From assembly GCA_013289145.1 (NCBI GenBank), contig JABDAM010000012.1:1-39248 (forward strand): a stretch of 39,248 bases of DNA, read 5' to 3'. Position numbers and translations under genes: made by a program. The DNA comes from Alphaproteobacteria bacterium. Its GTDB lineage: Bacteria > Pseudomonadota > Alphaproteobacteria > UBA11073. This document shows, in pieces, positions 12,900 to 18,014 of the stretch (the first letter of the stretch is position 1; the number at the start of each line of letters is the position of its first letter). The notes beneath the pieces were generated by a model that did not search any database, was not told the DNA's origin, and saw only the letters and a program-made list of their open reading frames with translations.

Positions 12900-13811
12900 T
12901 TACGCCTTAAATTCTAGTCCCCAATTTTCATAATGCTCCGGATCATCCTGCCAGCGTTCGGCGACTTTGACGTACAAAAACAGGTGCACGGGCTTGCCCG
13001 CCAGTTCGGCGATTTCGGCCTGGGCGGCTTCGCGGATTTCGCGGATTTTCGCGCCGCCCTTGCCGACCACGATGGCTTTTTGCCCTTCGCGTTCAACCAG
13101 AATAGTTTGCTGGATTTTCGCGCTGCCGTCGCGGAAATTTTCCCAGGTGTCGGTGACGACGGTGGAAACGTAGGGTAATTCCGCGCCCAGGTGGTGATAC
13201 AATTGCTCACGCGTCAATTCGGCGGCAATCAGACGTTCTGAAATATCCGTCAATTGGTCTTCGGGATAATGCCACGTGCCTTCGGGAATGGCCGCCAGCA
13301 ATTGCGATTTCAAATCCGCCAGGCCGTCATCATGTTTCGCCGCAATCATCAGGATTTTTTCAAAGATGCCGAGTTTTTCACATTCCGCGGCCAGCGGCAA
13401 TAATTTCAGCCGGTCGATTTTATCGATTTTGTTGAGCAATAGCCAAACATGCTCCGTTTTTTGTTCCTTGATCTGTTCGATGATAGGCTGCGTATGCGGA
13501 TCAATCTTGCCGCGCGATGCATCCATAATCAGCAGGCGAATGTCCGCATCCTGTTCTTCATTCCAGGCCGCGCGTACCATGGCACGGTCCAGGCGTTTGG
13601 CGGGTTTGAAAATCCCGGGCGTGTCGATGAAAATGATCTGCCCCACGCCCTCGGTCAGCACGCCGCGAATGCGGGAGCGTGTCGTCTGCGCCTTGGATGA
13701 AACGGCGGCGAGCTTGATGCCCAGCAAATGGTTCATCAACGTGGATTTGCCCGCGTTGGGTGCGCCGAGGATGGCGACAAAACCACAACGGGTTTGATGC
13801 GTTTCTTTCAT
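12900..13811 (-). CDS. era: GTPase Era
   Basis: A 303-residue GTPase that binds the 3' end of 16S rRNA and helps mature the small ribosomal subunit. G1 is GAPNAGKS (16-23), G3 is DTPG (63-66) and G4 is NKID (126-129). The C-terminal KH domain includes the GKGGAKIREI loop. In most relatives era directly follows rnc; here a 412-codon NUDT9-like gene separates them, leaving 56 bases before era. Confidence 0.96.
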   Translation of the reverse strand: MKETHQTRCGFVAILGAPNAGKSTLMNHLLGIKLAAVSSKAQTTRSRIRGVLTEGVGQIIFIDTPGIFKPAKRLDRAMVRAAWNEEQDADIRLLIMDASRGKIDPHTQPIIEQIKEQKTEHVWLLLNKIDKIDRLKLLPLAAECEKLGIFEKILMIAAKHDDGLADLKSQLLAAIPEGTWHYPEDQLTDISERLIAAELTREQLYHHLGAELPYVSTVVTDTWENFRDGSAKIQQTILVEREGQKAIVVGKGGAKIREIREAAQAEIAELAGKPVHLFLYVKVAERWQDDPEHYENWGLEFKA

Positions 13812-13867: not shown

Positions 13868-15106
13868 TTAAAGGGGCGTTACGGGGGCTGCCGGAGTGGT
13901 ATCTTGCACTGTTGGCTTAACCCCAGCCGTGCAGGACTTAAGATAGCGGCCGATATCACGCATCTGCGCCATGATGGAGGGCTCGACGGCAATGCCTTTT
14001 TCCTGCCGGTCGAGCAGGAATGACGCGGCCATAAAAGCGAACATCGGGCCATGGCTGGCGAAGGCGTCGCGGATAAGGTCCGCGTCTAGTCGCAGCAACT
14101 TCACATCACTGGCATCATCACCGGGTGAGAATTTATAATCATATTTCGGGTTCTCGCCGCGAATATATTGCCATGTCGCATCATCCATCAAAAACCAGGA
14201 CAGGCGGGTTTCAATCCAGGCTTGGTTGGTGTTGCGATTGTCGTTCAATACAGGTCCGGCGAAGCATTCTTTGCCAGTCGCGATAACTTCATAAAGCCGA
14301 TCCAGAAATCCGGGATCTTCCTGTTGTACCTGCTGCAATTTGAAAGCAGTGATGGTCTGGTCGCACATTTCTTCGATATCGGCTTCTTTTAATACAATAC
14401 CGCCGTTCCGTGCCATTTTTTGTGCAATTACATTTTGTAATGCGGGTTCGACTTTTTTTTCATTTTCCTTAGAGAGCGGAATGGAACCGCTGATCATTTC
14501 TTCAAAGAATTCTTCCATGCGGCTTTGGATGATTGCATGCGTGTCCAGTACGAAACCGCCTTCATCCGTTTCTTGAAACTTGGCAAACCCGCCTGCGAAA
14601 GCCGGCGCGTTATTGTCAAATTTTCTTAGAATCCCAAGTGTTGCATAGGCTGCCGGCACGCCACTTCCATCTGGATGAATAATGATTACGCCGTTATCCA
14701 CGGCATGATTGGGGCCATAAACTCCCAATGATCCACGGCCTGTTAAACCTGTATTCATGTAGGGATTGATTGGCCGTCCGTTTACATCAAATTCATAAAC
14801 GGTTCCAGTATTGGTGGCGCGGCGCCCTTCATTCCATTGTTCACCTGGCTGCAGAGGGCAAGCCGCATCATCCGCCCAGGGCGCGCCAATCACGCCTTCA
14901 TGTGTGAACTCCACCGGATTGTCATAATTGCGCTCGACGCCTTTGTAACGGAAACTAACGCCTAAATGCTCCAGTTTTCCCAAATCCAGTGCCTCGGCCC
15001 CTGCGATTAAAACTTTGGCGAGATTAGTGATGTCGGTATCGACCAGATCGCTCGGCACCGCCTCTAATTGTTCCTGAAGGCCGGAAATTGAGTTTGGATA
15101 CTGCAA
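13868..15106 (-). CDS. NUDT9-family Nudix hydrolase-like protein (putative ADP-ribose pyrophosphatase)
   Basis: A 412-residue protein whose motifs line up in order with human NUDT9 and the TRPM2 NUDT9-H domain (recalled family features, not a database search): PVEFT (64-68), APWAD (75-79), the block 111-137 containing RPINP, GLTGRG and YGPNHAVD, RNTNQAWIET (291-300), PGDDASDVK (328-336) and ASH (350-352). The Nudix box is unusual. GG-x5-E is present (172-179), but about 11 extra residues precede EEFFEE (198-203), and the usual Arg of REUxEE is Glu. The two acidic metal ligands Glu202-Glu203 remain. A 90-residue insert (about 205-290) follows. Start: TTG, 7 bases after GGGAG; an ATG between them is out of frame. 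Likely substrate ADP-ribose (inference). Confidence 0.72.
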   Translation of the reverse strand: MQYPNSISGLQEQLEAVPSDLVDTDITNLAKVLIAGAEALDLGKLEHLGVSFRYKGVERNYDNPVEFTHEGVIGAPWADDAACPLQPGEQWNEGRRATNTGTVYEFDVNGRPINPYMNTGLTGRGSLGVYGPNHAVDNGVIIIHPDGSGVPAAYATLGILRKFDNNAPAFAGGFAKFQETDEGGFVLDTHAIIQSRMEEFFEEMISGSIPLSKENEKKVEPALQNVIAQKMARNGGIVLKEADIEEMCDQTITAFKLQQVQQEDPGFLDRLYEVIATGKECFAGPVLNDNRNTNQAWIETRLSWFLMDDATWQYIRGENPKYDYKFSPGDDASDVKLLRLDADLIRDAFASHGPMFAFMAASFLLDRQEKGIAVEPSIMAQMRDIGRYLKSCTAGVKPTVQDTTPAAPVTPL

Positions 15107-15167
15107 AAGCCATCTCCCATTGTGTTAAGTATAGCGACTTAATCTCTAGCAAAAGGCATTCTAAATG

Positions 15168-15848
15168 TCAAGTTTTCGTGGTTGCTAGGGTGTTCAACAA
15201 CGCTTCCGCCGCCGCTTTTTCCGCCGCGCGGCGGGAGGTTCCGGCGCCCTGCGCGGGTACGTGACTCTTGACAGAAACTTCAATCACAAATTCCGGCGCA
15301 TGGTCGGGGCCGGTGCGGCTGACTTCGCGGTAATCGGGCAGGGGCAGGCCGCGTGCTTGCGCCCATTCTTGCAGCGCGGTTTTGGGTTCAATCGGTGGCG
15401 CCAGATTGGCATTCAACAATGGCGACCAGAAACGCATGACGACCGCGCGGATGATCGTAAAATCGCTGTCCAGATAAATCGCGCCGATCATGGCTTCACA
15501 GGCGTCGGACAGGGTCGCGGGATTAACGATTTCATCGCCGATATATTCGCTGCTGGCCGCTTCGATCAATTTATGCAATTCCCACTGCCGCGCGATCAGC
15601 GCGCAAGTTTCCGCGCGCACCAATCCGGCATGACGTTTAGCGAGATCACCTTCGGATTCATCTGGAAAAGCCGACATCAGCATTTCCGCCACTACTAGCC
15701 CGAGCACGCGGTCTCCGAGAAATTCCAGCCTTTCATAAGCGGATGCTTTTCCGTTGGCGCGGCGGGAGGGGTGGGTCAGCGCATCGCGCAGAAAATTTTC
15801 ATCGGCGAACGTATATTGCAAAACGTTAAAGATGCGGTCGCGGCTCAT
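15168..15848 (-). CDS. rnc: Ribonuclease III
   Basis: A 226-residue double-strand-specific endoribonuclease that processes rRNA precursors and structured mRNAs. The signature ERLEFLGDRVL (39-49) and the second acidic cluster DACEAMIGAIYLD supply the metal-binding residues, and a double-stranded RNA-binding domain follows (about 155-226, ending in RRAAEKAAAEALL). The start is 3 bases after the lepB stop. The next gene in the operon is the NUDT9-like protein, not era. Confidence 0.96.
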   Translation of the reverse strand: MSRDRIFNVLQYTFADENFLRDALTHPSRRANGKASAYERLEFLGDRVLGLVVAEMLMSAFPDESEGDLAKRHAGLVRAETCALIARQWELHKLIEAASSEYIGDEIVNPATLSDACEAMIGAIYLDSDFTIIRAVVMRFWSPLLNANLAPPIEPKTALQEWAQARGLPLPDYREVSRTGPDHAPEFVIEVSVKSHVPAQGAGTSRRAAEKAAAEALLNTLATTKT

Positions 15849-17129: not shown

Positions 17130-18014
17130 TTAAAGTTGAAAACTTGGTGGTCCGGATGGGATAAGGTTTTTAAATGTCATGAATTCCAGCAACAAGCCCG
17201 GATTGGCGAAATGCAGCCCAAGGCACAGGCCACGCAACAGCCGCATTCCGGTTTTCGGGCTGGCAACGCGGCGCAAGTCGACAATTTCAACCGATGTTTC
17301 ACCACGTTCCGTCATTTTTTTCAGGGCTTCCTGCGTATATTCTTGCGTAAAGTGCAAGAGGCTGGGGTAGCGCAGCATTTGTTCATAGGCGCGCTTGTTA
17401 GCGGCATCAAAGTCAGTTTTAGAGTGATCCTTAAGCAAAGTTTCTGCAGCAAAATATGGTCCCAATCCTGCATGAATATAGGTATATTTTTGAATTACTT
17501 TTGCACATAAATCATGCCATTCCCGGCTTTTTTCATGCAGGATTTCCGCTGCGTTCACAGCATCGCTCGCCGCAAAATCGATGATGGCTCCCGGAGCATC
17601 TCGATTTTCAAGAGCTATTTTGGAAAAATCCGTTACGCGCAAAGCAATCAGATGCGTGCGCAAAGTTTTATGCAGCTCAGGGTTTGTTGCGCCAACAACG
17701 GATTTAATCAGACGGTCCTGTTGCAATAAGTCTTCGATTTCCTCGTATTTAGGGCTGGTGGATAACATAATTCTTCCCGCCGTTTCTTCCTCTTCTATCT
17801 CGGAAATACCAAGGGCCAGACATGATAGGCTGCCATCGTGTTTATGGGTTTCGGCGTGCGCAATCTCAAAGAACAGTCCTTCTTGCAAGCTTCTATTTAG
17901 CTCTTCAGCGATTTCCAAGGGAAGTGTCAGGCGCGGCGCTGCTTCCAATTCCATGCGCTGGTCGGCGATGTCCGCGCACCATTTTTGCAATAGATTAGCA
18001 TTGCTATTACTCAT
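17130..18014 (-). CDS. Unknown protein between spoT and acpS
   Basis: A 294-residue soluble, mostly helical and acidic protein that I do not recognise. It has no signal peptide, no transmembrane segment and no clear catalytic motif. The N-terminal third is rich in Glu (for example SEIEEEETAGRI). The C-terminus is more hydrophobic and basic (GMRLLRGLCLGLHFANPGLL). The start is well supported: AAGGAAG lies 8 bases before ATG 18014. It leads the acpS-lepB-rnc series and has its own likely promoter, the motif at 18071-18098, which is shared with two other genes in the window. Its base composition is more AT-rich than acpS or lepB, which may mean later acquisition. Confidence 0.8.
   Translation of the reverse strand: MSNSNANLLQKWCADIADQRMELEAAPRLTLPLEIAEELNRSLQEGLFFEIAHAETHKHDGSLSCLALGISEIEEEETAGRIMLSTSPKYEEIEDLLQQDRLIKSVVGATNPELHKTLRTHLIALRVTDFSKIALENRDAPGAIIDFAASDAVNAAEILHEKSREWHDLCAKVIQKYTYIHAGLGPYFAAETLLKDHSKTDFDAANKRAYEQMLRYPSLLHFTQEYTQEALKKMTERGETSVEIVDLRRVASPKTGMRLLRGLCLGLHFANPGLLLEFMTFKNLIPSGPPSFQL

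What the first reader, a model, noticed from the sequence alone, without database searches (positions are those of the whole stretch)
13868..15106. NUDT9-family Nudix gene lodged between rnc and era
The protein carries the NUDT9/TRPM2-NUDT9H motif series in order, but its Nudix box has about 11 extra residues and Glu instead of the lead Arg, and a roughly 90-residue helical insert follows. It lies in the rnc-era operon, where these genes are normally adjacent. It could be an ADP-ribose or NAD-cap-related hydrolase tied to RNA processing, or a sensor that binds ADP-ribose with low catalysis. The family match and position are seen; the role is speculation.
Basis: partly seen in the sequence, partly recalled or inferred. 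Interest (0 to 1): 0.62.

Follow-up and report, generated by a model that had tools for sequence, protein, structure and literature searches.

The report
Bacterial NUDT9-like ADP-ribose recycling enzyme
The gene between rnc and era belongs to a rare bacterial branch of the ADP-ribose-cutting enzyme NUDT9; relatives and the same genome's other contigs suggest its real partners are the genes of a second NAD-making operon, not its RNA-processing neighbours.

Summary
The gene is real (412 codons, TTG start, minus strand) and NUDT9-related: a profile of 11 relatives hits human NUDT9 at E=3.7e-24. The lead Arg is replaced, but E199, F201, E202 and E203 are invariant in all 11. One relative without the loop insert aligns directly through the NUDT9 box (KEFFEE over REFGEE), and a published active NUDT9-H domain has AEFGEE, so catalysis is expected. 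The loop insert (about 11 residues) is real but absent from one close relative. The helical insert is about 48 residues, not 90, and varies. The rnc/era position is one lineage's insertion: rnc and era adjoin in the sampled genomes outside the genus, and the genus-mate has a different ORF there. Homologues lie in or accompany an accessory NAD operon (nicotinate phosphoribosyltransferase, nicotinamidase-like, NadD, NadE, PRPP synthetase; four linked loci, one a fusion to a XopQ-like domain whose structural relative binds ADP-ribose). The window's genome carries this operon on another contig (L051), with similar low GC3. Best reading: an ADP-ribose pyrophosphatase recycling ADP-ribose to AMP and ribose-5-phosphate for NAD resynthesis. 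Not shown: activity and fold (AlphaFold failed, two sequences only). New variant of a known kind.

The parts
13868..15106 (-). NUDT9-like gene, 412 aa, TTG start
   Evidence: ORF; phmmer to NUDT9 1Q33 E=1.4e-11; family of 11
15114..15118 (-). Shine-Dalgarno-like GGGAG, 7 nt before the TTG start
   Evidence: sequence read directly; N-terminus agrees with homologues
14696..14740 (-). GRGSLGVYGPNHAVD motif (residues 123-137) shared with NUDT9
   Evidence: alignments
14588..14593 (-). GG that opens the Nudix box (residues 172-173), invariant in 11 of 11
14513..14587 (-). expanded Nudix loop (residues 174-198) with about 11 extra residues and Glu198 at the lead-Arg position
   Evidence: insert absent in L036 homologue
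14498..14512 (-). EFFEE (residues 199-203), equivalent of NUDT9 EFGEE metal-binding helix
   Evidence: invariant E199, F201, E202, E203; homologue aligned through the NUDT9 box
14339..14482 (-). variable helical insert, about 48 residues (209-256)
14207..14242 (-). DNRNTNQAWIET (residues 289-300), NUDT9 DxRNTxxAWxET motif
14111..14122 (-). GDDA (residues 329-332), shared with NUDT9
14051..14059 (-). ASH (residues 350-352), shared with NUDT9
12900..13811 (-). era (neighbour, not a functional partner by the evidence)
   Evidence: Pfam MMR_HSR1 and KH_2
15168..15848 (-). rnc (neighbour, not a functional partner by the evidence)
   Evidence: Pfam Ribonuclease_3 and dsrm

Best explanation
The gene encodes a cytoplasmic ADP-ribose pyrophosphatase of a divergent NUDT9-like subfamily. 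It cuts ADP-ribose to AMP and ribose-5-phosphate. The cell's accessory NAD salvage operon (PRPP synthetase, nicotinamidase-like protein, nicotinate phosphoribosyltransferase, NadD, NadE; on another contig of this genome) turns ribose-5-phosphate into PRPP and, with nicotinate, back into NAD. In sister lineages the gene sits in that operon; here it sits in the rnc-era gap, where it is probably read through from the lepB-rnc transcript. Shown: homology, conserved metal-site residues, operon linkage in four relatives, co-presence in this genome. Inferred: catalysis, substrate, flow of products, co-transcription.
For: NUDT9 match E=3.7e-24 and direct box alignment; E199/F201/E202/E203 invariant; operon linkage in L041/L014, L035, L037, L038; own-genome operon L051; co-occurrence in 94 genomes, 6 of 8 versus 5 of 86, Fisher p=1.4e-5, not corrected for relatedness; operon includes PRPP synthetase in L041, L051, L052, L053; fusion partner resembles XopQ at E=1e-25, and XopQ binds ADP-ribose (PMC8910321); similar low GC3 of gene and operon, 0.51 and 0.39-0.57, against 0.60-0.66 in housekeeping genes; ADPR-to-PRPP recycling and NadM-Nudix fusions are established ideas (PMC3680494); AEFGEE NUDT9-H is active (PMC6461439).
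Against: No assay and no reliable structure. Five relatives have the phosphoribosyltransferase without this gene. G236 has the gene without the operon's transferase, and G407 only a divergent version of it. The GX5E glutamate and the box glycine are not kept. In the window genome the gene is not linked to the operon.
Confidence: 0.7

Rival explanations
1. ADP-ribose sensor: the domain binds ADP-ribose with little catalysis and regulates NAD genes or a partner protein, as human TRPM2 NUDT9-H or NrtR do.
For: Altered Nudix box; operon setting like that of NrtR regulators (inference; PMC6800001 for NrtR); fusion to a XopQ-like domain, XopQ being an ADP-ribose binder without nucleosidase activity.
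Against: Residues whose loss makes human TRPM2 inactive are kept in 11 of 11, apart from one Met and some Leu at F200 (PMC6461439); no DNA-binding or other known domain found.
Confidence: 0.13
2. Hydrolase acting on another nucleotide of NAD metabolism (NADH, NaAD, FAD, ADP-ribosyl conjugates), with the loop and helical inserts reshaping the pocket.
For: Inserts next to the active site; NAD operon context; XopQ-like fusion partner.
Against: DxRNTxxAWxET, GDDA and ASH motifs of NUDT9 are conserved; the inserts are missing or reduced in some relatives, so they do not define the family's substrate.
Confidence: 0.13
3. Enzyme tied to rnc-era functions, such as NAD-cap removal from RNA.
For: Same strand, gaps of 61 and 56 bases, no terminator-like site in the gaps.
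Against: No other genome tested has it there; genus-mate has a different ORF at the same spot with no remnant; no match to NudC or other RNA-related families above cut-off.
Confidence: 0.03

Closest known systems
NUDT9 (human mitochondrial ADP-ribose pyrophosphatase, PDB 1Q33)
   Same: Ordered motifs GRGxLGxxGPNHAxD, GG, EF-EE, DxRNTxxAWxET, GDDA, ASH; both halves align
   Different: No lead Arg, no GX5E Glu, 11-residue loop insert, about 48-residue helical insert; distant in sequence
TRPM2 NUDT9-H domains (invertebrate, active; human, inactive)
   Same: Next-best PDB matches; loss of the lead Arg also occurs in an active one (AEFGEE, PMC6461439)
   Different: No channel; keeps the EF that human TRPM2 lost
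NadM-Nudix (Synechocystis slr0787 type) and COG1058-PncC
   Same: ADP-ribose pyrophosphatase physically tied to NAD regeneration (PMC3680494)
   Different: Different Nudix lineage or a different fold; here the ties are to Preiss-Handler genes and PRPP synthetase
NARP1 (phage NAD reconstitution: Adps and Namat)
   Same: Rebuilds NAD from breakdown products (PMC12774641)
   Different: Here the transferase is nicotinate-type (best PDB match 2f7f), with nicotinamidase-like, NadD and NadE; ADP-ribose would be cut, not pyrophosphorylated
XopQ/HopQ1 nucleoside-hydrolase-like proteins
   Same: Homologous to the N-terminal domain fused to the L014 relative
   Different: Domain absent from the window protein

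Membership tests
NUDT9-like ADP-ribose pyrophosphatases | Statistically significant homology to NUDT9 over both halves | tested here: met
   E=3.7e-24, two stretches
NUDT9-like ADP-ribose pyrophosphatases | NUDT9-specific motifs GRGxLGxxGPNHAxD and DxRNTxxAWxET | tested here: met
NUDT9-like ADP-ribose pyrophosphatases | Core box E-F/U-x-E-E | tested here: met
   EFFEE; E199, F201, E202, E203 invariant, aligned to REFGEE via L036
NUDT9-like ADP-ribose pyrophosphatases | ADP-ribose hydrolysis | not testable with these tools
   needs an assay
NUDT9-like ADP-ribose pyrophosphatases | NUDT9 fold (cap and core) | tested here: inconclusive
   AF2 with two sequences, mean pLDDT 41
Canonical Nudix hydrolase | Full GX5EX7REUXEEXGU signature | tested here: not met
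   11 extra residues, Glu for Arg, no GX5E Glu; no Pfam NUDIX hit for the window protein; paralogue L039:5523-6716 meets GX5EX7REUXEE
TRPM2 channel | Channel domains | tested here: not met
   412 aa; no channel domain
NrtR regulators | C-terminal winged helix | tested here: not met
   no such domain found by Pfam or NCBIfam
NARP1 | NAMPT-like Namat plus Adps | tested here: not met
   operon transferase profile matches nicotinate phosphoribosyltransferases; the synthetase matches PRPP synthetases; activity not testable

The most novel reading that the evidence does not exclude
The NUDT9-like gene plus the duplicate, patchily spread NAD operon form a dedicated bacterial NAD-rebuilding module that rescues cells from NAD-destroying attack (phage defence, toxins or competitors), in which ADP-ribose is routed through ribose-5-phosphate and an operon-encoded PRPP synthetase.
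Probability: 0.15. Interest if true: 0.75.

Novelty: new variant of a known kind. Interest (0 to 1): 0.5.

Why it matters
It adds a rare, sporadic bacterial branch to the NUDT9/TRPM2 lineage that no Pfam or NCBIfam model recognises in the window protein, places it with a second complete NAD salvage set, and gives a directly testable route from ADP-ribose back to NAD. It also shows that an odd gene neighbour (rnc-era) can mislead about function.

Tried and rejected
Phage collection: no homologue; plasmids: only distant Streptomyces Nudix proteins; viral contigs: none. PADLOC: no hit for gene or operon. A remnant of the gene in the genus-mate's rnc-era gap: none. NAD auxotrophy as the reason for the salvage operon: rejected for this genome, which has NadA. 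NARP1 identity of the operon: rejected on sequence. Wider phylum sample: no further genome beyond the window's, though a sparse sample. Promoter and terminator scan: not above chance. Laying the whole genome in the Python box was not available.

Full report
What is there. The ORF at 13868-15106 on the minus strand has 412 codons, starts with TTG behind GGGAG, and lies 61 bases after rnc and 56 before era, all on one strand. It has no significant Pfam or NCBIfam match, yet phmmer finds human NUDT9 (1Q33) at E=1.4e-11 and TRPM2 chanzymes at 3e-8. The contig is unlikely to be a chimera at this point: era (85%), rnc (76%) and the surrounding gene order match the genus-mate G001 on both sides.

The family. 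Homologues are rare: 3 of 385 class genomes, one of them (G007) with two ordinary NUDT9-like proteins; 8 of 94 relatives of G236; no other genome in a phylum sample; none in phage records or viral contigs. Eleven proteins align (A2). The profile matches 1Q33 at E=3.7e-24 over both halves. In a tree the window protein sits, with weak support, among proteins of other families, from G423, G436, G453 and G402. Protein identity to these (45-51%) is about equal to or above that of the housekeeping protein Era (43-50%), which with the patchy spread suggests horizontal transfer (inference).

The Nudix box. E198 replaces Arg, but this position is E, K, M, R or S in the family, while E199, F201, E202 and E203 never change. 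The close homologue L036:8041-9255 lacks the insert and aligns through the box, KEFFEE over REFGEE; the diverged paralogue L039:5523-6716 has a full GX5EX7REUXEE. In NUDT9, RILGEE and REFGKK mutants are inactive, while Nematostella NUDT9-H with AEFGEE is active (PMC6461439). The window box EEFFEE keeps what matters in those tests, so activity is the default expectation. The helical insert is about 48 residues and mostly absent in G236; it is not a defining feature.

Position. In the sampled genomes outside the genus where both genes could be placed, rnc and era adjoin, including genomes that carry the gene elsewhere. G001 has an unrelated 147-aa ORF in the gap and no remnant of the gene. Both inserted ORFs begin inside the same 11-mer TGGCTTTTGCA (0 of 500 shuffles reach that length). 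The rnc-era link is therefore a feature of this lineage and says little about function.

Partners. In L041/L014 (MAG Co_bin.48; the same contig is G436 C119) the domain is fused behind a XopQ-like nucleoside-hydrolase domain and closes a run with PRPP synthetase, NAD kinase, NAPRTase, nicotinamidase-like protein and NAD synthetase, next to NadD. L035, L037 and L038 also place it with NAPRTase, a nicotinamidase-like protein and NadD, L038 also with NadE. G402, G423 and the window's genome hold gene and operon apart. In the window's genome the operon is on contig C5 (L051: NadD, two unknown ORFs, 896-aa NadE, HD protein, nicotinamidase-like, NAPRTase, PRPP synthetase). Gene and operon share a low GC3 (0.51; 0.39-0.57) against 0.60-0.66 of the window's neighbouring genes. 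Co-occurrence among 94 genomes: 6 of 8 with the gene have the strong NAPRTase, 5 of 86 without it do (p=1.4e-5; not corrected for shared ancestry, and two of the six are from one genus). The operon's NadE is a second copy in several genomes, and NadA is present in 6 of 10 including this one, so the operon is an addition, not the only source of NAD.

Mechanism. ADP-ribose is cut to AMP and ribose-5-phosphate; ribose-5-phosphate becomes PRPP; nicotinamide becomes nicotinate; NAPRTase, NadD and NadE rebuild NAD. That ADP-ribose pyrophosphatases feed NAD regeneration this way was proposed before, with NadM-Nudix and COG1058-PncC as precedents (PMC3680494). The XopQ link adds that the fused domain's relative binds ADP-ribose (PMC8910321). 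The transferase is nicotinate-type (2f7f) and the synthetase matches PRPP synthetases, so this is not NARP1 (PMC12774641).

Limits. No activity is shown. Five relatives have the NAPRTase without the gene.

Noticed in passing
L051:1033-10690 (G000 contig C5): Second NAD operon of the window's genome, with a long divergent NadE (896 aa), an HD-domain protein and two ORFs (296 and 368 aa) without Pfam match.
   Followed up: partly
L004:1042-1485 and window 15106: Genus-mate carries an unrelated 147-aa ORF in the same rnc-era gap; both inserts start inside the shared 11-mer TGGCTTTTGCA, suggesting a repeated insertion point.
   Followed up: partly
L002:27-959 and L003:1087-2070 (G007): Two NUDT9-like proteins (one with an intact Nudix box, REETG) that begin with a stretch resembling a signal peptide; possibly secreted.
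   Followed up: no
L039:5523-9743 (G407): Cluster of two NUDT9-like paralogues, a further Nudix protein and a GGDEF protein.
   Followed up: no
window 17130-18014 (-): 294-aa ORF between the relA-like gene and acpS with no significant Pfam or NCBIfam match, another orphan in a conserved gene run.
   Followed up: no
L014:4909-5970: XopQ-like nucleoside-hydrolase domain fused to a NUDT9-like domain in a bacterial NAD operon, a fusion I did not find described.
   Followed up: partly
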